Below are positions 37,576 through 64,000 of a stretch of DNA of 64,000 nucleotides, one piece after another. Location of the stretch: contig CALXXN010000009.1 of the NCBI GenBank assembly GCA_944392695.1, positions 1 through 64,000 on the forward strand, in the 5' to 3' direction. The stretch is from an uncultured Spirochaetales bacterium (lineage in GTDB: Bacteria; Spirochaetota; Spirochaetia; Sphaerochaetales; Sphaerochaetaceae). The notes under the pieces were generated by a model that was not told where the DNA came from, ran no database searches, and was given only the letters and a program-made list of their open reading frames with translations. A program made the position numbers and the translations under genes. Positions within the stretch are counted from its first letter, which is position 1, and each line of letters opens with the position of its first letter.

Positions 37576-38703
37576 TCAATGGATGCCATGGGACAGGCGG
37601 AAGTCCCTCTCAGCTTTTGCGATTGCTGCGATATCATTGGCGCAGGCGCTGAAGAAGGCCTTGTATGCTGGGCAGAGACAGCTCTTCTTGAGCCCTCCAT
37701 CCTGGAAATCCTCCCTGTCCCTCCTGCACCCACCACGGCACAGCCTGTACCACTGGCAGGTCCTGCATTCATCTTCGACCTTCAATGATGCTTCGACGAA
37801 GCCAAGCTCATGGCGGCGCTTGTCAGCCTCATCGAAGGTGCACTCATGTATGTCACCCAGGCAGTAGCCATCAAGCACGTAGAAGTCACAGGGGTAGAGC
37901 GTTCCATCCGCCTCGACGACGAAGTAGTCGCCACAGCGTCCATTCATCCCACATTCCTCTGCCACGCCAGTGAGCAGCAGATGGACGAGGTTGTCGAAGT
38001 AACGCACAGACACATAGCTTCCCCGTTCCCAGTCCCTTTTGTAGAGCTTGAAGAGACGGATCAGGAAGCGTCCATAGCTTCCTGCCGTCAGTGACCATGG
38101 CCTGGTGCCACGTCCCTCCATAGGGTCTATGCATGGGATGAACTGCAGGTGTGCCTCCCCATTGCGCTTCATGAAGTCGTATACCTCGTCAGCATGGCGT
38201 GCGGTGTCCTCTGTGACCGTGATCAGGATGTTGTGGTCGACATCAGCCTTCTGGAGGAGGCGCATCGTATTGAAGACATCCTTGAATGTGCCATTGCCAC
38301 CCTTGTCATGGCGGTAGAGGTCATGGATCTTCTTAGGCCCGTCAAGGGAAAGACCGACGAGGAAACCCTCATCATGCAGGAAGGATGCCCATTCCTGTGT
38401 GATGTGGCGTCCATTGGTCTGTATGGTGAAGCTGACAGGACGCCCTGCGGCCTTCTCCTTGGCGTAGGCAGTGAAGTCCTGGAAGAAGGGTAGCCCTGAC
38501 AGCGTGGGCTCTCCTCCTTGGAAGCCAAAGGCTACGCTTGTTGCGCCATCAAGGGCCTTGTCGATCAGGAGATGGGCGGTGGCTGTGTCCATCATGCCAT
38601 GGTCCTTGATGCTACGTGACTCGACCTCATCAGCATAGAAGCAGTAGCGGCAGGCCATGTCGCACTTGCCGCTCGCACTCTTGATCAGTAGTGTGCGTCT
38701 CAT
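37576..38703 (-). CDS. Anaerobic sulfatase-maturating radical SAM enzyme
   Basis: 375 residues. The radical SAM cluster motif CDMACRYCFY is at about residue 14. FGFQGGEPTLSGLPFF and SFTIQTNGRHI bind SAM. A SPASM-type C-terminal region has Cys clusters (CGMNGRCGDYFVVEADGTLYPCDFYVL; CRTCQWYRLCRGGCRRD) for two auxiliary 4Fe-4S centres. This is the anSME pattern, converting sulfatase Cys or Ser to formylglycine without oxygen. It shares ATGA with the sulfatase gene before it, its likely substrate. Confidence 0.92.
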   Translation of the reverse strand: MRRTLLIKSASGKCDMACRYCFYADEVESRSIKDHGMMDTATAHLLIDKALDGATSVAFGFQGGEPTLSGLPFFQDFTAYAKEKAAGRPVSFTIQTNGRHITQEWASFLHDEGFLVGLSLDGPKKIHDLYRHDKGGNGTFKDVFNTMRLLQKADVDHNILITVTEDTARHADEVYDFMKRNGEAHLQFIPCIDPMEGRGTRPWSLTAGSYGRFLIRLFKLYKRDWERGSYVSVRYFDNLVHLLLTGVAEECGMNGRCGDYFVVEADGTLYPCDFYVLDGYCLGDIHECTFDEADKRRHELGFVEASLKVEDECRTCQWYRLCRGGCRRDREDFQDGGLKKSCLCPAYKAFFSACANDIAAIAKAERDFRLSHGIH

Positions 38704-40151
38704 GGCAGTAGTGGCGGGTAGTCGCGTCCTGCGACGAGCGAAGTGCCATCAGTGAAGCCTTCAGGGCGTCCTGTGAGTTCCTTGACCAGAGTGGACCTCA
38801 GGCTTGCGATGCGTCCTTCCTTTGACTTGTCCCCGATCAGGTCGTTGAGCTCATGAGGGTCCGCGTCAAGGTCGAAGTACTGTTCCTGCCCACTCGTGCT
38901 GTGCCAGATGTACTTGTCGTCCTCTGTGACGATCCAGTGGTTCGACCACTGGGCATAGGAATGCTCACCATGTATGTAGCTGCGCAGTTTCCTACCAGGG
39001 TCGTCGACCAAGGGGAGCATCGAGCCTCCATCACAGAATGGGGATGATGCCCCTGCCGCATCAAGCAGCGTCGGCATGACATCCCTTAGCTCGACCAGGG
39101 CGCTGTTCTTCTCGTTTTCATGTCCATCCAGGCCGGCTGCCTTGAGGTTGGACAGGATCATCGGGATATGGCAGCTGCCTTCGTAAGGACGGCTCTTGCG
39201 GAACATGTGGTGGTCACCCAGTTCCTCTCCATGGTCCGAGGTGAACAGGATCAAGGTGTCGTCGTAGAGCTTGTGCTCGACAAGTGCCATGATGAGGCGG
39301 CCTATCTGGTGGTCGAGGTGGGTGATCAAGGCATAGTAGCCCGCCCTCATCTCATGTATGAGCTCCTCATCCACAGGACCTGTCTTGCTGTCGAATGTAC
39401 GTCCCATGGGACCATTGATGTAGGAATCATCCTCCCAGGTGCCGATGAATGGCTTCTGCAGGTCCTTGGAGAGGTAACGCTCAAGGTAATAGGCAGGGGG
39501 GTCCAGGGGCGGATGCGGCTTCAGATAGCTCGCCATCAGGAAGAAGGGCTGGTCCGGATCCCTGCGTCGCAGGAAGTCGAGGCAGTTGTCAGTGACCCAG
39601 TTGGTCGGATGGTATTTCTCCTCATAGCACCAAGGACGTACGACCCAGCTGTTGCAGTCCAGACCTGTGTCTGTCGTGTCAGCGGCAGCGCCAAGATTGC
39701 AACGCAGCCAATGGAAGTAATCGTCAGCGTAGAACTGGCTCTCTTGTTGCTTCACATCCTCATAACGTGCGGCGTGGAGATAGCCATCGTGGAGTATGAC
39801 GTTGTCAAAGCCCAGGTAGTTGCGCAAGGGGTGGACATGCATCTTGCCGATACAGGTCGTGTAATAACCAGCCTTGCCCAGTTCACCCGCCAACGTATGC
39901 GGATAATCCCAGCGGACGCAGTCCTCGTAACCCGTCCTCTTGTGATGTTCCTGGGCGAGTCCTGTATGCAGGGCGGCCCTGGCTGCTATGCAGCTGGGGC
40001 AGGATGAGTAGGCATGTGTGAAGGTGACACCACGTGCGGCAAGCGTGTCGATGTAGGGTGTCTTGACATCAGGATGTCCTGTGCAGCCGAGGCTGTCGCC
40101 CCTGAGCTGGTCTGTCATGATCAGGACTATGTTAGGCTTTTTCCGCTTCAT
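38700..40151 (-). CDS. Sulfatase with Cys-type CIAAR site
   Basis: About 483 residues of the alkaline-phosphatase-like sulfatase family. Metal site NIVLIMTDQLRGDSLG, activation site SSCPSCIAARAALHTG, and later LILFTSDHGEELGDHH. The formylglycine motif is C-x-A-A-R, where most members have C-x-P-x-R. There is no signal peptide, so it may act in the cytoplasm on imported sugars. The likely start is ATG at 40151 (MKRKKPNIV); ATG at 40163 is an alternative. It is paired with the maturase. Confidence 0.88.
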   Translation of the reverse strand: MKRKKPNIVLIMTDQLRGDSLGCTGHPDVKTPYIDTLAARGVTFTHAYSSCPSCIAARAALHTGLAQEHHKRTGYEDCVRWDYPHTLAGELGKAGYYTTCIGKMHVHPLRNYLGFDNVILHDGYLHAARYEDVKQQESQFYADDYFHWLRCNLGAAADTTDTGLDCNSWVVRPWCYEEKYHPTNWVTDNCLDFLRRRDPDQPFFLMASYLKPHPPLDPPAYYLERYLSKDLQKPFIGTWEDDSYINGPMGRTFDSKTGPVDEELIHEMRAGYYALITHLDHQIGRLIMALVEHKLYDDTLILFTSDHGEELGDHHMFRKSRPYEGSCHIPMILSNLKAAGLDGHENEKNSALVELRDVMPTLLDAAGASSPFCDGGSMLPLVDDPGRKLRSYIHGEHSYAQWSNHWIVTEDDKYIWHSTSGQEQYFDLDADPHELNDLIGDKSKEGRIASLRSTLVKELTGRPEGFTDGTSLVAGRDYPPLLP

Positions 40152-40177
40152 GATGACAAGCATAGCCTGAGGACGGG

Positions 40178-40212
40178 TAAAAAGAAAGACAGCAGGCCCT
40201 ACACCTGCTGTC
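40178..40212 (-). terminator. Rho-independent terminator between the two sulfatase genes
   Basis: Nine-base stem GACAGCAGG/CCTGCTGTC (40188-40212), then CTTTCTTTTT on the minus strand. It separates the sulfatase-maturase pair from the phosphorylase-sulfatase unit. Confidence 0.8.
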
Positions 40213-40227
40213 AGGAACACACACCGT

Positions 40228-41634
40228 TCAGTTCAAGCCTTCCCAGCCAGGATTCCGTTCAGGGATCCTGGCGTTGATCCCATCACGCCATTGATGCAGG
40301 AGCTCCCTCAGCTCTCCAGCCTTGGCCTTATGGGAGGCTGCAAGGTTGGTCATCTCGGATGGGTCCGTCTCAAGGTCATAGAGTTCCAGATGCATGTCCT
40401 CGAAGAACTCGATCAGCTTCCACCTGCCAAGACGCACGCTGGAAGCCGGACGGCCTCCCTGGTTGCCATAATGAGGGTAGTGCCAGAAGAGTGGCCTGTC
40501 CTCCATCGCCCGTCCTTCAAGAGCCGGGCGCAGGCTGATTCCATCGACATGCTGCTGTGGCTGCAAGTCAAGACCTGCCAGGTCGAGTACTGTCGGGTAG
40601 ATATCAGGACTCGAGGTCGGCACCTGTGAGTGCACGCCTGCCTGGACGACTGGTGGGTAGATGATGGCCAGTGGGACACGGATCCCACCTTCATAACTCC
40701 AGCCCTTGCCCTCACGTGCAGGATGGTTGCAGGTCGGTGAGCCCTCGGCAGTGGAGAGCCCTCCATTGTCACTGGTGAAGACGATGATGGTGTCATCAAG
40801 CCTGCCTTCTTCCTCCAAGGTGGAGAGCAGGCGGCCTATGTTGTCATCAAGGTTCTTGATCATCGCAGCATAGACCACGTCAGATTGCACTATGCGCCGG
40901 GTGACCCTGAGGTGCTTCTTGTGCTCTGTCGGGAAGTGCTCGCACTCGACCAGTGGGTCGATCCTGTCAAGGCCCATGGCCGCTGCCTTGGCACGGAAGT
41001 AGGCTATATCCTCTTCCTTTGCTTGGCAGGGGGTGTGGACCGTGTAGTGCCACAGGTCCATGAAGAATGGGGCATCACCATTGGCTTTTATCAACTTGAT
41101 GGCCTCATCGGTCAGCCTGTCAGTCAGGTACTCCCCCTCAGGTCCATCAGGAAGCGTCTCTATGGCATAGGGGCTGAAGTAGCCCTGATGGGGATGTCCA
41201 AGGTGACAGCCTCCGATGTTGACATCAAAGCCCTGCTTGTCAGGATAATACTCCGCCGTACCCAGGTGCCACTTGCCCACATGGTAGGTCCTGTAACCAT
41301 TGTCCTTGAGGCAACGTGCGAGGTTGTACTCCTCAAGCGGCAGGTGTTTGATGTAGGGGGCGTCCACCAGGTATCCCTTGACCGGGTGGCATTCCCCGCT
41401 GGTGTCGATCCAATCAGTGACGCCCACTGTCGCAGGGTACTTGCCCGTGAGGAGGCTGGCCCTCGATGGCGAGCAGACTGGGCAGGAGGCGTAGGCGTTG
41501 TCGAACATCATGCCTGAGTGCATCAGGCGGTCGATATTCGGGCTTTCGTAGAAGCTGCTTCCACAGGCACCAAGGTCCTTCCAGCCCATGTCATCAATCA
41601 GGATCATCAGTATGTTGGCTTTCTTGTCTGCCAT
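40228..41634 (-). CDS. Sulfatase with canonical CSPSR site
   Basis: 468 residues. Metal site ILMILIDDMGWKDLGACG, formylglycine motif VCSPSRASLLTGKYP, GKWHLGTAEYYPDKQGFD, and IIVFTSDNGGLSTAEGSPTCNHPAREGKGWSYEGGIRVPL. This is the N-acetylgalactosamine/glucosamine-type S1 sulfatase pattern. No signal peptide is seen. GAGGACATA precedes the ATG. It follows the GH112 gene with a 13-pair hairpin between. It depends on the maturase two genes downstream. Confidence 0.92.
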   Translation of the reverse strand: MADKKANILMILIDDMGWKDLGACGSSFYESPNIDRLMHSGMMFDNAYASCPVCSPSRASLLTGKYPATVGVTDWIDTSGECHPVKGYLVDAPYIKHLPLEEYNLARCLKDNGYRTYHVGKWHLGTAEYYPDKQGFDVNIGGCHLGHPHQGYFSPYAIETLPDGPEGEYLTDRLTDEAIKLIKANGDAPFFMDLWHYTVHTPCQAKEEDIAYFRAKAAAMGLDRIDPLVECEHFPTEHKKHLRVTRRIVQSDVVYAAMIKNLDDNIGRLLSTLEEEGRLDDTIIVFTSDNGGLSTAEGSPTCNHPAREGKGWSYEGGIRVPLAIIYPPVVQAGVHSQVPTSSPDIYPTVLDLAGLDLQPQQHVDGISLRPALEGRAMEDRPLFWHYPHYGNQGGRPASSVRLGRWKLIEFFEDMHLELYDLETDPSEMTNLAASHKAKAGELRELLHQWRDGINARIPERNPGWEGLN

Positions 41635-43923: not shown

Positions 43924-44808
43924 TCAACCCTTGACGCCACCACCGGTGACACCGGCGATGATCTTCTCGGAGAGGAAGATGTACAAGAGGAAGGTCGGCA
44001 GGAATACAATGATGACAGCTGCGAACATTGCTCCATATTGTCCTGTGTACCTCATCGAGTTGACGATCTGCAGCAAGCCGACGCCTACTGGTGCGATCTC
44101 CTGGCTGTTCGCGAAGATCAAGGCCATGAAGAACTCGTTCCAGATGCCAAGGAAGTTGAAGATCGTGACTGTCACGAGGGCAGGCTGGACGAGTGGGAAC
44201 ATGATCCTCCAGAAGGTGCCAGCAGGTGAGCAGCCATCGATTGCGGCCGCTTCCTCATAGGATTTCGACAGTGTCTGGAAGAAGTTCAGGAGGAAGACCG
44301 TCGTGTATGGTACACGGAAGAAAATCATCAGCAGTGTGAAGATCAGGCGGTCAGGGGCGTTCCTCCAGCTTGCCGTGATCGCGTAAATCGGCAGGACGAT
44401 CATGACTGCTGGGACGCTCATCGCGATGATCAGGCTGTTCTTCAGGAGCTTGCTGCAGATGAATTTGTGACGTGAGAGCACATAGCTGGCTGGTGCGCTG
44501 ATCAGGATCGTCACAACACAACCGACAATTGAGTAGAGCAGGGAGTTGCCGAAGTAGCGTGCGACATTCTGCTGACTCCATGCGATCGCATAGTTCTCAA
44601 GATGTATGCCTGTCTCGAACTTGAAGACCTGGCCCTGCATGATCTCCGGGGTTGTCGAGAACGAGGCTGCGAGGATCCATGCCAGCATGGCCACAGTGAA
44701 GGCCAGCCAGATGAAGATGATGATATAGCCGGGAAGCATGGTCGCTTCCTTCCTCCAGTTGATTTTCTGGTGGACGCGTGGGAGTTTCTCTTTCTTTGTA
44801 AGACGCAT
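43924..44808 (-). CDS. CUT1 sugar ABC permease, MalG type
   Basis: About 294 residues with six membrane helices and the EAA loop YEEAAAIDGCSPAGTFWRIMFPLVQPAL. The N-terminus begins RLTKKEKLPRVHQK, then LPGYIIIFIWLAFTVAMLAWILAASF. GAGGAGGTGG ten bases before 44808 sets the start. Together with the gene at 44822 it forms the transmembrane channel of the importer. Confidence 0.9.
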   Translation of the reverse strand: MRLTKKEKLPRVHQKINWRKEATMLPGYIIIFIWLAFTVAMLAWILAASFSTTPEIMQGQVFKFETGIHLENYAIAWSQQNVARYFGNSLLYSIVGCVVTILISAPASYVLSRHKFICSKLLKNSLIIAMSVPAVMIVLPIYAITASWRNAPDRLIFTLLMIFFRVPYTTVFLLNFFQTLSKSYEEAAAIDGCSPAGTFWRIMFPLVQPALVTVTIFNFLGIWNEFFMALIFANSQEIAPVGVGLLQIVNSMRYTGQYGAMFAAVIIVFLPTFLLYIFLSEKIIAGVTGGGVKG

Positions 44809-44821
44809 TCTTTCCACCTCC

Positions 44822-46021
44822 TCAAAGCTCGATGTCATCATCCTTGATCAGCTTGTTCATGATCAGGTAGACTGCGAGGATGATTATGGCGAGTACGATA
44901 CCGACAGCGGCTGCCGCACCGGCGTCCGCCTGCTGGCTTCCTTTCGATGGGAAGGCAGTGTCGTAGAGGTACATGACAGGAACAATGACACTGGCTTCTG
45001 TATCAACAGGGCTGAACATCTTGGACCAGAGGTAGAAGGTGGCTGTGTTGATTGTCCAGAAGGTCAGGTTGGTCTTCGTGACCCCCTTGAGGAGGGGGAA
45101 GGTGATCTTGAAGGCCTGCTGGGCTTTGCTGGCGCCGTCGATCGTGGCCGCCTCATAAAGGTCTGCAGGGATCTTCTCGATGCCACTGATGAAGATCAGC
45201 ATGTAGTATCCAACGGCTCCGAAGATGAAGGATGCGAGCATGGCCCAGAACTTCATATCGGTCGCCAGCCAGTTGATCGGTGTCCCATTGAAGAACTTGA
45301 TGAGGCTGTTGAGCATGCCGTACTGCTGGTTGAAGATGTACTGGATCCACATCGTCGCCAAGGCGACAGCGCTGATGACGTTTGGCATGTAGATCGCGGC
45401 GCGGAAGAACTTCTTGCCACGTATGCCACTGGTGAGGATGACAGCGAACAAGAGGGCGAAGGCCAGCGTGATGATGCCACCAATCACCCAGATCATGAGC
45501 ATGTTCTGCAGTGATCGGATGAAGGCCTGGCTCTGGAAGATCTTCATGTATTTACCAAGGCCGACGAACTCCCACTGGCTGATGGGGGCCGAGATGTTCG
45601 GCATGTTGAAGAAGCTCATGAAGAAGGTCCTGATGACAGGGTAGGCGTACATCACGAGCAGTGCGATGACACAGGGCATGATGAAGCCGATGATCATGTG
45701 CTTCGTAGCGGCCTTGGGGTCGATGAGCTCCGGATGGGCTTCCTGGAAGCGCTCGCACTCGAGCATCAGGAAGACGGCGGCAATGGTCGACAGGAGGCCT
45801 AGTATGGCCGTCAGCTGTATGTTCAGCGTGCAGATCTGGATGAAGGACAGGAAGAACGTGACGGCCGAGAGCACAGGTCCCTTCTTCCAGAATGCCACGG
45901 CTGCGAAGATGGCTGCGGCGATTGATGGTATGCAGAGGATGGAGAAGCCTGCGAAGACGCACTGCAGCACGAGGGCCAGCAGGGGCAGGGCGATGGAAAG
46001 TATTCCAAAGATTGTAATCAT
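44822..46021 (-). CDS. CUT1 sugar ABC permease, MalF type, with extra N-terminal helices
   Basis: 399 residues, about 100 more than most CUT1 MalF-like permeases. The extra N-terminal part has three to four helices (IFGILSIALPLLALVLQCVFAGFSILCIPSIAAAIFAAVAFW; SAVTFFLSFIQICTL). The permease core begins at IIGFIMPCVIALLVMYAYPVIRTF, with EAA loop LYEAATIDGASKAQQAFKITFPLL. It begins in an ATGA overlap with the small membrane-protein gene. Confidence 0.88.
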   Translation of the reverse strand: MITIFGILSIALPLLALVLQCVFAGFSILCIPSIAAAIFAAVAFWKKGPVLSAVTFFLSFIQICTLNIQLTAILGLLSTIAAVFLMLECERFQEAHPELIDPKAATKHMIIGFIMPCVIALLVMYAYPVIRTFFMSFFNMPNISAPISQWEFVGLGKYMKIFQSQAFIRSLQNMLMIWVIGGIITLAFALLFAVILTSGIRGKKFFRAAIYMPNVISAVALATMWIQYIFNQQYGMLNSLIKFFNGTPINWLATDMKFWAMLASFIFGAVGYYMLIFISGIEKIPADLYEAATIDGASKAQQAFKITFPLLKGVTKTNLTFWTINTATFYLWSKMFSPVDTEASVIVPVMYLYDTAFPSKGSQQADAGAAAAVGIVLAIIILAVYLIMNKLIKDDDIEL

Positions 46022-46341
46022 TCCTTCTCACCTCCTTTTACAATGTATTGGTTGGTTCCCATATGCATGAGGACCGCTCCTACGACTACGGCGATCATGA
46101 GGACTGCATAGAGGAGCTTCCCAATCAGTGTCATGTAAGAGAACCTGAAGATGAATGTCAGTACCGCACAAGCGGCAAGACATGCCTTGAGGCTGGTCCT
46201 GGTTGGAATCACACGGCACATGATGCTGAGGAAGACCAGGAAGAGCGAGAGCAGGATGTTTGTGAATTGGACCGGGATGAAGGAAATGACAAGGCTCAGG
46301 GCCGAAGCGGCCAGAGCTGTTATGAAGCCTGCAAGTCCCAT
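46018..46341 (-). CDS. Small integral membrane protein in the importer operon
   Basis: 107 residues with three or four membrane helices (GFITALAASALSLVISFIPV; NILLSLFLVFLSIMCRVI; ACLAACAVLTFIF; LLYAVLMIAVVVGAVLMHM) and a short charged tail. I know no family for it. GGAGG lies six to ten bases before the ATG. It overlaps the permease start by four bases, which implies a linked job, perhaps in assembly of the unusually extended permease. Confidence 0.6.
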   Translation of the reverse strand: MGLAGFITALAASALSLVISFIPVQFTNILLSLFLVFLSIMCRVIPTRTSLKACLAACAVLTFIFRFSYMTLIGKLLYAVLMIAVVVGAVLMHMGTNQYIVKGGEKE

Positions 46342-46370
46342 GATCGCCTCCTTTTTTTAGTGTTCAATCG

Positions 46371-46401
46371 AAAAGAAAGGGGCGAGGCTTCCGCCTGCCC
46401 C
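46371..46401 (-). terminator. Partial terminator between solute-binding protein and membrane genes
   Basis: GGGGC-AGGC / GCCT-CGCCCC stem (46379-46401) followed on the minus strand by TTTCTTTT. It is expected to make the binding protein more abundant than the permeases. Confidence 0.7.
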
Positions 46402-46424
46402 CTTCTCATCAAACTGGGTTCTGC

Positions 46425-47708
46425 TCAATAAAGAGCGTCCATGGCTGCTGCGAACTGCTCACCAGAGGTGAAGCGGCCTTCGTAGAGCTGGATGATGACT
46501 TCCTTCAGCATGGCTGAAAGGTCGGTGTTGGCGTTGATGCCCATTGTCCAGGACAGTGCGCTCTCAGCGGCCATCAGGGTCTCGACAGCACCATCGAGTG
46601 AGGTGCAGTTGTTCCTTGGGTCGGCAGGAATCTGCGGGACTGCATCAGCCCTGGCCTGGTCGACTTCGCCAGTGACAAGGTGGATGATGAAGTCGAAAGC
46701 AGCCTGCGGGTTGTCGCTGTAGCTGGTGATTGCCAGTGAGTTCGTACCAGCGTAGGAGTCGGTTGAACCATTGCCACCATTCTCAACAGGGACTGTCGGG
46801 TAGTTGAAGACGCCCCACTTGATGCCAGCGCCGGTGTTGTTGTTGACCTCGGAGGTGACATAGTCGGCACAGACGACCATGGCGACGTTCTCGAAACCGA
46901 TCTTGTTCTGGCCGTTGGGGTACTCATCAGGAGCGCCCTCAGCGAGGTAACCACGGTTGACGAAGTCGATGATGTCATTGGCCGCGGCGATGACGCCAGG
47001 ATTCTGTGACCAGCCGCCGTTGACAGACAGCTCCCTTACGGCATCCTCGTCAACATACCTGTTGAGGTGGTAACCGAAGGTGAAGTCAGAGTAGGTCGCA
47101 TCGAGGGCGAGGGGCTGGAAGCCAGCATCGACGAGCTTCTGGCAGACGTCGAGGAACTCATCCCAGGTTGTGGGGGTCTCTGTGATGCCAGCGGCTTCGA
47201 ACTTGGCTGTATCGTAGAAGATACCACCAACGTTGGGCTGCTCAGTGATTGCGATGAGCTTTCCACCAGTGGCTTCCTTGATCGTGTTGTTGAACAGGGG
47301 GTAGCTGAAGTCATCATAACCAACAGCCTCGGCCATCTCAGTCACGTCATAGGTGTACTGGGCATACTGGTTGTAGATCCTGTCGTAGGCATCCTCGTAG
47401 ATGTCGATATCCTCACCACCCTGGAGGGCTGTGTTGATGATCGTCTTGATGTCGCGTCCGCGGAACTCGATGTTGACATGGCAGCCTGTCTCCTCCTCGA
47501 AGGCGGCAGCGGCATTGGCGATCGCCTGGCCCTGGGGCTCGGCGGCGTTCCACATCGACCACATCGTGATCTCGACGCCATCATAAATCTTGCCACCCTC
47601 TGTTGATGCCGTGGCGGCAGGAGCGGTTGTGGTCTCCGTTGTGCCGGTGGCGAAAACAGAAGTAACAGCAAGAAGAGCAATCAATGCAAATGAAAGAATC
47701 TTTTTCAT
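46425..47708 (-). CDS. Sugar ABC transporter solute-binding protein
   Basis: 427 residues, family 1 binding protein. The signal peptide MKKILSFALIALLAVTSVFATG ends without a lipobox, so the mature protein is probably soluble in the periplasm. DGVEITMWSMWNAAEPQGQ, then EFRGRDIKTIINTALQGGEDIDIYED, WDEFLDVCQKLVDAGFQPLALDA and a C-terminal FTSGEQFAAAMDAL mark the fold. First gene of the importer-GH112 operon; divergent from the AraC gene. The likely ligand is a galactosyl-N-acetylhexosamine disaccharide, inferred from context. Confidence 0.92.
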   Translation of the reverse strand: MKKILSFALIALLAVTSVFATGTTETTTAPAATASTEGGKIYDGVEITMWSMWNAAEPQGQAIANAAAAFEEETGCHVNIEFRGRDIKTIINTALQGGEDIDIYEDAYDRIYNQYAQYTYDVTEMAEAVGYDDFSYPLFNNTIKEATGGKLIAITEQPNVGGIFYDTAKFEAAGITETPTTWDEFLDVCQKLVDAGFQPLALDATYSDFTFGYHLNRYVDEDAVRELSVNGGWSQNPGVIAAANDIIDFVNRGYLAEGAPDEYPNGQNKIGFENVAMVVCADYVTSEVNNNTGAGIKWGVFNYPTVPVENGGNGSTDSYAGTNSLAITSYSDNPQAAFDFIIHLVTGEVDQARADAVPQIPADPRNNCTSLDGAVETLMAAESALSWTMGINANTDLSAMLKEVIIQLYEGRFTSGEQFAAAMDALY

Positions 47709-60844: not shown

Positions 60845-61621
60845 TCAAGTGCTGAGCTTCTGCCTCGGCTTCTTCACCTGACAGGGAAGAATGGCCGTAT
60901 TGTAGTGTTCTGCAAGGCGCTCGTACTCACGTGTGAGAATGATTTCGCCTTCTCTTGGATGATGCTGCACGCCGGTCAGAAGATTGTCGCAGACGAGTAC
61001 TCTGGAAACGCCTCCATAGTAGTTCCACATGTTTACGTGGCACTGGATCCAGTTGGCTTCATCCATGGACAGCGTAGGTTCCACATAGGCAAGCCTCGAA
61101 CATACGAGATCTGCAACGAACAGATAGACCGTGACCCTTTTGCCTGTCTCTGGAGACGTGTAATGCATTGTGGGGCCGGACCAGTCCACCTCTATGCGGT
61201 CTCCGGCCTTGTGCTCAATGTGGCTGGCAAACCCCTTTGAAGAACAGTATGTGTTGTACCTGCGGCAGAACTTCTGGTAGCTCATCGCATTCTTGCCATT
61301 GCAGATGCATTCGACCTTGTACTCCTTCCACAACAGCTTGAGTGTGACTCCTGGGCGATTGAGCTCTTCGTGGACCTTCTCAAAGTCCACCGGTTCATGG
61401 ACCTCTTCCGCGGTGATCTTCTCCGGGAAGAACAGCTTGTACAAACTGTCATCGTCCATGTCTGGAACGGGCCCTTCGGGGAGTATCCCCAGTTCCAGGC
61501 CTTTTGCCGCAACATCGCTCTCCGAATGCTTCGAGATGTGCCATGATGAGGCAATGCTGTTGTGCGAAGCCTTCTTGATCAGTTCATCGAGAATCTTGCG
61601 CACATTGATCTTTCTAGCCAT
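60845..61621 (-). pseudogene. istA: IS21-family transposase IstA, 3'-truncated
   Basis: 258 residues of IstA. HTH-like start (MARKINVRKILDELIKKASHNSIASSWHISKHSE), then KAGDRIEVDWSGPTM (first catalytic Asp), VYLFVADLVCSRLAYVEPTLSMDEANWIQCHVNMWNYYGGVSRVLVCDNLLTGV (second Asp), ending PCQVKKPRQKLST. Full IstA continues past this point with the catalytic Glu region and about 150-250 more residues, so it is truncated. istB is absent. The element's right end lies upstream at 61.7 kb. Confidence 0.85.
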
Positions 61622-62340: not shown

Positions 62341-63780
62341 TCAGTTCTCCTGGCCGTCGAAGACGGGATAGTAGCTATGCCGATAGAAATTGTCGTCGAT
62401 CTGCCTCGCTGCGATGTTCAGCACGATGCCGGGATCGGCGCCATTCGCCGCTTCGATCAGCGCGTGTCCGATCATCTTGCTTATGAATGGGTATGCCGGA
62501 GTCTGCGGCCTCGTCACCGAGCATTCCGAAAGCTGGCGGAACAGCGTCTCATGGTCATGATTTATGGCCTTGAAGTCGCGGCATATGCCATAGACATCCT
62601 TCCTTGCGGGCATTCCCACGACCTTGAAGAGCTTGAGCTGGTTCTCTATCGAGAAGAACGACCTTATGACATCCCAGCTCTCCGCAGGCTTCTTCGACTG
62701 CTTCGAGATGCAGAGCCCCCATCCTCCATGGGCAGCGGCCTTCCTCTTCATGTGGGGCAGGGGAAGTATCCCTATCTCGTCCTTTACGCTGTCCGGCAGA
62801 GCGAAATATGCGCGCGACTCCGAAACGGACATGAGCATATCGTTCGGGAAGAGCTCCCTGCGATCGTTGATGTGGGAGTAGCCGCTGCGGAAGAGCGAGG
62901 CGGCGAAATCCAGCGCCTTGATGGCGGCAGGGGAATCGAGCGCACCACGTGCATGGCTGCCTTCATCGAGGCATCCGGCATCGTCCTGGGCCAGTATCGA
63001 GATGAGGAAGTATGAAAGCCACTCGCCCTGGCGTGAGGAAAGACCCCATCCTGAGTCCATGAGGAGCGGGACGTCCATGCCGCCCGTCTCCTTTGCCTTC
63101 CTGCAGATGCCTAAAAACTCATCCCATGTCCATCCCTCCTCGTATGAAGGAACGGGCAGGCTGAGCCTGCTGAACTTCTGCTTGCTGTACAGCAGGCAGA
63201 GCGAGGACTCGTAGTATCCGAGATGGTACAGGCGATCATTGAACGTGCCTTGGCGTATTATCGACGGGAAGAGCGCGTCGCGCAGGTCGTCCGATATGAA
63301 ATCATCGAGGGGGATTATCGCATTCATGTATGCCCAATATGGCATATCTGGGCCATCGATCGAGATTATGTCTGGAGCCTCTCCGCCTGCAAAGGCCTTC
63401 GTGAGCGTATCCCTCAGGGGCACCAGCTCATTGCTGATGAACTCGATCGCTAGATGCGGCCCCTCGGATGAGCGGTTGTATCTGGAGCAGAAGTCCTGCC
63501 AGAACGAGGCTTCCATATCATTGCTGGGGCACACCATCATGCGTATGGATTCCCTCTCGGTGCGCTCCAGGACGAACGTTCCCTTTCCCTGCTTCCTTGT
63601 TACGTAGCCAGCTGCCTCAAGGCTCTTCAGGGCCTGCGTCACTGTGCTTTTGCTAACGGAGAATGAAGCCATCAGCTCCGTGTCCGAAGGTATCCTGTCA
63701 TTGGTCTTGTATATCCCTTCCCTGATGTCGGAAACGATTCGGTTGCGCAATGCTTCGTATTTTGGAACAGCTTTCGTCAT
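62341..63780 (-). CDS. GntR-type HTH fused to an ABC solute-binding-protein domain
   Basis: 479 residues. Residues 1-75 are a GntR winged helix (YEALRNRIVSDIREGIYKTNDRIPSDTELMASFSVSKSTVTQALKSLEAAGYVTRKQGKGTFV). The remaining 400 have the family 1 sugar-binding-protein pattern (DIISIDGPDMPYWAYMNAIIPLDDFI; PSIIRQGTFNDRLYHLGYYESSLCLLYSKQKF; EEGWTWDEFLGICRKAKE). There is no signal peptide, so it would bind its ligand in the cytoplasm. The ATG at 63780 is set by CGGAG seven bases upstream. It is divergent from a promoter leading out of the window, and palindromic sites flank the region. Confidence 0.85.
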   Translation of the reverse strand: MTKAVPKYEALRNRIVSDIREGIYKTNDRIPSDTELMASFSVSKSTVTQALKSLEAAGYVTRKQGKGTFVLERTERESIRMMVCPSNDMEASFWQDFCSRYNRSSEGPHLAIEFISNELVPLRDTLTKAFAGGEAPDIISIDGPDMPYWAYMNAIIPLDDFISDDLRDALFPSIIRQGTFNDRLYHLGYYESSLCLLYSKQKFSRLSLPVPSYEEGWTWDEFLGICRKAKETGGMDVPLLMDSGWGLSSRQGEWLSYFLISILAQDDAGCLDEGSHARGALDSPAAIKALDFAASLFRSGYSHINDRRELFPNDMLMSVSESRAYFALPDSVKDEIGILPLPHMKRKAAAHGGWGLCISKQSKKPAESWDVIRSFFSIENQLKLFKVVGMPARKDVYGICRDFKAINHDHETLFRQLSECSVTRPQTPAYPFISKMIGHALIEAANGADPGIVLNIAARQIDDNFYRHSYYPVFDGQEN

Positions 63781-63799: not shown

Positions 63800-63828
63800 A
63801 TCGTATCCGCAGTGGTTCTTGAAGTCAA
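63800..63828 (-). promoter_or_regulatory. Putative promoter of the GntR-fusion gene
   Basis: On the minus strand, TTGACT (63828-63823), a 17-base spacer and TACGAT (63805-63800). The start falls about 15 bases before the ATG at 63780. The palindromic operator is immediately upstream of the -35 box. Confidence 0.6.
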
Positions 63829-63831
63829 GTA

Positions 63832-63843
63832 TTGTTCGAACAA
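63832..63843. promoter_or_regulatory. Palindromic operator 1
   Basis: Perfect 12-base palindrome TTGTTCGAACAA, four bases upstream of the -35 box of the GntR-fusion promoter. A second copy with one mismatch lies at 63979. Confidence 0.7.
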
Positions 63844-63910: not shown

Positions 63911-63939
63911 TTGACAGAGCCATTTTGAGGGAGTAGTAT
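63911..63939 (+). promoter_or_regulatory. Divergent promoter reading out of the window
   Basis: TTGACA (63911-63916), 17 bases, TAGTAT (63934-63939). A gene probably begins just past position 64000, since GGAGG occurs at 63994-63998. Confidence 0.65.
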
Positions 63940-63978
63940 GTAGTCAAACAATCGAATGACTTATGGTATTTCCACTAA

Positions 63979-63990
63979 TAGTTCGAACAA
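63979..63990. promoter_or_regulatory. Palindromic operator 2
   Basis: TAGTTCGAACAA, core GTTCGAAC, one mismatch from operator 1. It lies about 33 bases downstream of the expected start of the divergent promoter and just before a ribosome-site-like GGAGG. Confidence 0.65.
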
Positions 63991-64000
63991 CATGGAGGCG

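What the first reader, a model, noticed from the sequence alone, without database searches (positions are those of the whole stretch)
62341..63780. A transcription regulator whose ligand domain is an ABC sugar-binding protein
The protein joins a GntR HTH to a complete-looking family 1 (large, type 2) solute-binding domain with no signal peptide. GntR proteins usually carry FadR, HutC, MocR or YtrA partners, and sugar-sensing regulators usually use the smaller LacI-like type 1 fold. A cytoplasmic transporter-binding fold used as a transcriptional sensor would be an unusual solution. Seen: both domains in one frame. Inferred: sensing of an imported sugar.
Basis: partly seen in the sequence, partly recalled or inferred. 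Interest (0 to 1): 0.75.

Follow-up and report, generated by a model that had tools for sequence, protein, structure and literature searches.

The report
Gene switch with transporter sugar-binding domain
A gut-type spirochaete carries a gene switch in which a DNA-binding head is joined to a complete copy of the sugar-catching protein that normally sits outside the cell for an importer, and it probably turns on a neighbouring sucrose/fructan-type sugar operon when that sugar has entered the cell.

Summary
One intact frame (62341-63780, minus strand, 479 aa, ATG with a Shine-Dalgarno) joins a GntR winged helix (residues 8-70) to a complete type-2 sugar solute-binding domain (SBP_bac_1; modelled residues 73-471 match whole sugar-binding proteins at Z about 39). 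No known GntR effector domain and no signal peptide is present. A 97.4%-identical 8.5 kb copy of the locus in another genus reads through the junction. The regulator lies divergent to a GH116 - SBP - two permeases - GH32 - PfkB kinase operon, and the region between them carries two copies of one palindrome (TTGTTCGAACAA, the only perfect copy in 2.31 Mb, and TAGTTCGAACAA). The best working model is a repressor released by a cytoplasmic beta-fructoside (sucrose or fructo-oligosaccharide): non-fused relatives of its sensor domain sit next to GH32 in several genera, whereas relatives of the operon's own binding protein do not. The architecture is not unique. I found other GntR-SBP fusions in Spirochaetota and at least seven in a Bacillota family; a tree rejects a single origin for them. 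HTH-to-binding-protein regulators already exist (SgrR/DsvR, SBP_bac_5). I found no described GntR-SBP_bac_1 member. Ligand sensing and repression remain untested.

The parts
62341..63780 (-). GntR-SBP_bac_1 regulator, 479 aa
   Evidence: ATG 63780 with GGAG Shine-Dalgarno
63571..63759 (-). GntR winged helix-turn-helix (residues 8-70)
   Evidence: Pfam PF00392 E 3.5e-18; AraR, YydK, NagR and DasR DNA-binding domains among nearest solved structures
62368..63564 (-). complete type-2 (family 1) sugar solute-binding domain (residues 73-471)
   Evidence: Pfam PF01547/PF13416; full-length structural match Z 37-40
63832..63843 (.). operator candidate 1, TTGTTCGAACAA, perfect palindrome 3 bp upstream of the regulator's predicted -35
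   Evidence: only exact copy in the 2.31 Mb genome; identical in the G340 copy; resembles AraR consensus TtGTaCGTAcaa (PMC4218819)
63979..63990 (.). operator candidate 2, TAGTTCGAACAA, in the predicted leader of the divergent operon, 147 bp (14.0 turns of 10.5 bp) from candidate 1
   Evidence: one of only six one-mismatch copies in the genome; identical in G340; spacing
63800..63828 (-). predicted regulator promoter TTGACT-17-TACGAT
   Evidence: consensus scan; expected 0.8 chance hits in the region, so weak
63911..63939 (+). predicted promoter of the divergent operon TTGACA-17-TAGTAT
   Evidence: consensus scan, 10 of 12
63940..64000 (+). leader of the divergent operon; its first gene (GH116) starts at contig position C9:64004, just outside the window, followed by SBP, two permeases, GH32 and PfkB to C9:71790

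Best explanation
It is a one-component transcription factor: a GntR-type dimeric wHTH whose effector domain is a captured ABC sugar-binding protein. Shown: both domains in one intact frame, complete SBP fold, divergent sugar operon, two matching palindromes. Inferred: without ligand the dimer sits on site 63832-63843 (beside its own promoter) and on site 63979-63990 (in the operon leader, roadblocking transcription), possibly looped because the centres are exactly 14 helical turns apart. When a beta-fructoside (sucrose or a fructo-oligosaccharide) imported by the operon's ABC transporter reaches the cytoplasm, the SBP domain closes on it, the HTH arms are re-oriented and repression is lifted. 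GH32 and GH116 then cleave the sugar and the PfkB kinase phosphorylates the released fructose.
For: Domains and fold. Operon: GH116, SBP, two permeases, GH32, PfkB, divergent to the regulator; it holds the only GH32 gene in the genome. Operators: the 12-mer occurs at no or one mismatch 7 times in 2.31 Mb, two of them in the 223 bp between the genes; chance of two or more about 2e-7, though the motif was chosen from that region. Both copies are unchanged in G340 although the intergenic region is 91% identical. The motif resembles the AraR box, and AraR has a related HTH. The same pattern lies about 100 bp upstream of two other GntR genes. Ligand: non-fused relatives of the sensor domain are neighbours of GH32 in Rhizobium, Sinorhizobium, Arthrobacter, Curtobacterium and several spirochaetes; with equal flanks in Spirochaetota 6 of 7 relatives at 90 bits or more against 2 of 61 weaker ones. 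Relatives of the operon's own SBP: 0 of 5. An Opitutia relative adjoins a sucrose-phosphate synthase/phosphatase. The locus moved between genera as one block: 97.4% over 8.5 kb against 81% for fusA.
Against: No experiment. Sensor-domain identity to any GH32-linked SBP is only 22-30%, where specificity can change; two Verrucomicrobia relatives had GH1 or no GH32 nearby. The 6-of-7 count is not phylogenetically independent (about three clades) and the bit cut-off was chosen afterwards. Conservation of both palindromes between two close copies is weak evidence (about 10% by chance, my estimate from 20 differences in 225 columns). GH116 matches exo-beta-D-arabinofuranosidase best, so the sugar could be a beta-D-arabinofuranoside. 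Repressor rather than activator is assumed from GntR family habit. Other GntR-SBP fusions sit beside unrelated operons and share no such palindrome.
Confidence: 0.55

Rival explanations
1. Same architecture and targets, but the ligand is a beta-D-arabinofuranoside or other furanoside rather than a fructoside, GH116 being the main enzyme of the operon.
For: GH116 protein is closest to ExoMA2 exo-beta-D-arabinofuranosidase (E 7.7e-186); a His and an Arg at ExoMA2's spacing for His446 and Arg483, named in PMC10509167 as distinguishing it from beta-glucosidases, are kept in the alignment (residue match by spacing, my reading).
Against: GH32 plus a PfkB kinase, and GH32 next to the sensor domain's relatives, point to fructose units; beta-D-fructofuranose and beta-D-arabinofuranose share ring stereochemistry, so one GH116 may take both (own knowledge).
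Confidence: 0.2
2. Activator: ligand-bound regulator switches the operon on from site 63832, which lies upstream of the operon promoter, while site 63979 tunes it.
For: Site 1 lies about 70 bp upstream of the operon -35; some GntR members activate (for example CitO, PMC4746285, abstract).
Against: Site 2 lies downstream of the predicted start, a repressor position; most GntR proteins repress.
Confidence: 0.15
3. The SBP domain no longer binds a ligand and serves only as a dimerisation or protein-interaction module.
For: No ligand data; low identity to any characterised SBP.
Against: Complete bilobal fold with high confidence, retained motifs shared with functional SBPs (DGP, WTWDEF, RPxTPxYP), predominantly synonymous change between the two copies in the part that can be compared.
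Confidence: 0.08
4. A chance or assembly fusion, or a decaying gene in a mobile patch with IS21 and TnpB remnants on its sides.
For: IS21 transposase remnant at 60848-61621 and a partial TnpB downstream of the operon; MAG origin; absent from the other same-genus genomes searched.
Against: Independent second copy reads across the junction with 10 synonymous to 3 non-synonymous codon differences; the architecture recurs elsewhere.
Confidence: 0.02

Closest known systems
GntR / AraR subfamily (B. subtilis AraR: GntR wHTH + LacI-type type-1 periplasmic-binding fold)
   Same: GntR wHTH joined to a periplasmic-binding-protein fold, arabinose operon control, similar operator core TTGTnCGnACAA
   Different: Sensor is the larger type-2 SBP_bac_1 fold of ABC importers, not the type-1 LacI/ribose-binding fold
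SgrR / DsvR (HTH + SBP_bac_5)
   Same: Cytoplasmic HTH regulator with an ABC-importer type-2 solute-binding domain, linked to sugar metabolism (PMC13060122)
   Different: Other HTH type (SgrR_N, own knowledge) and other SBP family (that of peptide-binding proteins)
Other GntR-SBP_bac_1 proteins found here (L063/L133, L095, L235-L241)
   Same: Identical domain order and size, 450-500 aa, many beside ABC sugar importers
   Different: Sensor domains in other branches; a tree rejects one clade of all ten; other operons (heparinase-like, oxidoreductases)
GntR / HutC subfamily (NagR, DasR)
   Same: HTH closest to HutC-type models
   Different: No UTRA domain
Trehalose/maltose-binding protein type SBPs (1eu8, 5ci5)
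   Same: Whole sensor domain aligns, Z about 39
   Different: Those are exported receptors; this one has an HTH where the signal peptide would be

Membership tests
GntR superfamily (PF00392) | N-terminal GntR winged HTH above the curated cut-off | tested here: met
   65.5 bits against cut-off 27
GntR superfamily (PF00392) | binds a palindromic operator as a dimer | not testable with these tools
   two candidate palindromes only
[quoted passage not shown]
   no such Pfam or NCBIfam match beyond the HTH; C-terminal 400 aa is SBP_bac_1
GntR AraR subfamily | type-1 (LacI-like, Peripla_BP) effector domain | tested here: not met
   SBP_bac_1 instead; whole-domain match to type-2 sugar SBPs
SBP family 1 (PF01547) fold | Pfam cut-off and complete bilobal domain | tested here: met
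   78.4 bits against 26; Z 37-40 over 366-381 residues
ABC transporter substrate-binding protein (functional class) | signal peptide or lipobox for export | tested here: not met
   the frame begins with the HTH and the alternative TTG start adds MFEQYLTSRTTADTMIHIGEY, no signal sequence by inspection
SgrR family | SBP_bac_5 effector domain | tested here: not met
   no SBP_bac_5 match at E 1 or better
beta-fructoside sensor | binds sucrose or fructo-oligosaccharide | not testable with these tools
   context only

The most novel reading that the evidence does not exclude
GntR proteins with a captured family-1 ABC sugar-binding protein are an undescribed effector class of the GntR superfamily that arose more than once by replacing the signal peptide of an importer receptor with a wHTH, so that bacteria sense the imported sugar with the same kind of receptor that imports it; this member is its fructoside branch.
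Probability: 0.45. Interest if true: 0.62.

Novelty: new variant of a known kind. Interest (0 to 1): 0.5.

Why it matters
Four subfamilies hold about 95% of GntR proteins (PMC4333415). A class whose sensor is a full sugar receptor, with many liganded structures of its relatives, would make ligand prediction and allosteric coupling in GntR repressors directly testable, and would offer ready sugar biosensor parts. It also suggests domain capture turning exported receptors into cytoplasmic switches more than once.

Tried and rejected
Known GntR effector domain in residues 80-479: none. Recent duplication of the operon's own SBP as source of the sensor: rejected, the two are distant (25% over part) and have different nearest structures. 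Apparent LacI-SBP fusion in Rhizobium is two adjacent genes. Apparent full-length Thermotogaceae hit L132 is a separate GntR gene next to an SBP gene. Search for conserved palindromes upstream of the other fusions gave nothing consistent. The genome-contig scan used two short patterns and mostly returned ordinary GntR genes, so it gives no count of fusions. Paper searches for a described GntR-SBP_bac_1 protein found none, in an open-access library only.

Full report
OBSERVATION. The minus-strand frame 62341-63780 encodes 479 aa without a stop. Residues 8-70 are a GntR winged HTH (E 3.5e-18) and residues 92-381 match SBP_bac_1 (E 1.3e-21), both well above the curated cut-offs; no GntR effector domain is present. 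The AlphaFold2 model (26-row alignment, pLDDT 86.4, pTM 0.80) shows a small wHTH and one complete bilobal domain, residues 73-471, that aligns with whole solved sugar-binding proteins: 5ci5 Z 39.8, 3uor 39.7, 1eu8 39.4. Rows within one Z unit are ties. No solved chain covers both parts.

REALITY OF THE FUSION. The whole-genome search places the window at G000:C9:1-64000. A second genome of another genus in the same family (G340; the same contig appears in the named collection as CALXXR010000010, uncultured Spirochaetaceae bacterium E05__bin115) holds an 8.5 kb block 97.4% identical to C9:63350-71848, from the regulator's first 144 codons (the contig ends there) to just past the PfkB gene. fusA of the two genomes is 81% identical, so the block has moved between genera recently (inference). 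The other genomes of the window's genus sampled gave no match to the full-length protein. Codon differences in the shared part of the regulator are 10 synonymous and 3 non-synonymous.

SURROUNDINGS. Divergent to the regulator, on the + strand: GH116 (C9:64004 onward), SBP_bac_1 binding protein, two BPD permeases, GH32 and a PfkB kinase. This is the genome's only GH32 gene. The GH116 protein is far closer to exo-beta-D-arabinofuranosidase ExoMA2 (8ic6, E 7.7e-186) than to GH116 beta-glucosidases (E about 1e-25). PMC10509167 names His446 and Arg483 of ExoMA2 as the subsite -1 difference from beta-glucosidases; residues with the same spacing are kept here, by my reading of the alignment.

OPERATORS. 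TTGTTCGAACAA (63832-63843) is the only perfect copy in 2.31 Mb; six further sites have one mismatch and one of these is TAGTTCGAACAA at 63979-63990. Two such sites in the 223 bp between the genes would be expected by chance with probability about 2e-7; as the motif was taken from this region, the fair figure is for the second site alone, about 6e-4. Both sites are identical in the G340 copy, where the intergenic region is otherwise 91% identical. Their centres lie 147 bp apart, 14.0 turns at 10.5 bp. Site 1 lies next to the predicted regulator promoter, site 2 downstream of the predicted operon promoter (promoter scans are weak evidence). The core TTGTnCGnACAA is that of AraR boxes (consensus in PMC4218819), and the AraR HTH is among the nearest solved structures. 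The same pattern lies about 100 bp upstream of the GntR genes in L150 and L158.

LIGAND. The sensor domain is not a copy of the operon's own SBP: 25% identity over part of the length, different nearest solved structures. Its own non-fused relatives sit beside GH32 in Rhizobium, Sinorhizobium and Arthrobacter, Curtobacterium, and spirochaetes G209, G228, G367, G325, G334 and G443. An Opitutia relative adjoins a sucrose-phosphate synthase/phosphatase gene. With equal flanks within Spirochaetota, 6 of 7 relatives at 90 bits or more have GH32 within 1.5 kb against 2 of 61 weaker relatives (Fisher 1.7e-6; rows are not independent and the cut-off was picked afterwards, but cut-offs 60 and 80 also give p below 1e-4). 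As a control, five annotated plasmid loci with relatives of the operon's SBP had none. A beta-fructoside such as sucrose is therefore the most likely ligand; this is inference from context at 22-30% identity.

OTHER FUSIONS AND ORIGIN. GntR-SBP_bac_1 proteins were verified at L063/L133 and L095 in Spirochaetota and at L235-L241 in a Bacillota family reached through a Paenibacillus-titled record. Counts are lower bounds, since only a few candidates per genome were scored. In a tree of 83 SBP domains the ten fusions do not form one clade (p-AU 0.0055); long branches are in play, so I claim more than one origin as likely, not the exact number. Bacillota fusions adjoin ABC importers together with a heparinase-like gene or Gfo/Idh/MocA oxidoreductases, so the class is not tied to one sugar.

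KNOWN KINDS. Four subfamilies cover nearly 95% of GntR proteins, with AraR among the minor ones (PMC4333415). AraR joins GntR to a type-1 binding fold; SgrR and DsvR join another HTH to SBP_bac_5 (PMC13060122); LysR-type regulators have a type-2 binding fold (own knowledge). The present protein works like these but meets the membership test of none except GntR in the broad sense.

VERDICT. Observation confirmed; interpretation partly supported; new variant of a known kind. Ligand, operator and sign of regulation are predictions open to simple tests.

Noticed in passing
L031:4005-6479 (contig C9:64004-66478, first gene right of the window): GH116 enzyme of the exo-beta-D-arabinofuranosidase (ExoMA2) type in an operon with GH32 and a PfkB kinase; it may be a beta-fructofuranosidase or act on D-arabinofuranosides, an activity worth testing.
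   Followed up: partly
C9:63350-71848 against L094 (G340): 8.5 kb operon-plus-regulator block 97.4% identical between two genera whose fusA genes are 81% identical: recent horizontal transfer. In G340 a GH28 polygalacturonase-like gene follows the PfkB gene.
   Followed up: yes
window 60848-61621 and L031:12789-13622: Transposon remnants on both sides of the locus: a truncated IS21 transposase and a partial IS200/IS605 TnpB.
   Followed up: partly
L235-L241: Bacillota family of GntR-SBP_bac_1 fusions, in the annotated case next to a heparinase II/III-like gene and a DUF624 protein, without any specific name in the libraries searched.
   Followed up: partly
window 37576-41634 and 43924-47708: Two sulfatase-like genes, a radical-SAM protein resembling an anaerobic sulfatase-maturating enzyme, and an ABC sugar importer with a divergent AraC-type regulator: a likely sulfated-glycan locus (read from ORF sequences only, except the SBP match).
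   Followed up: no
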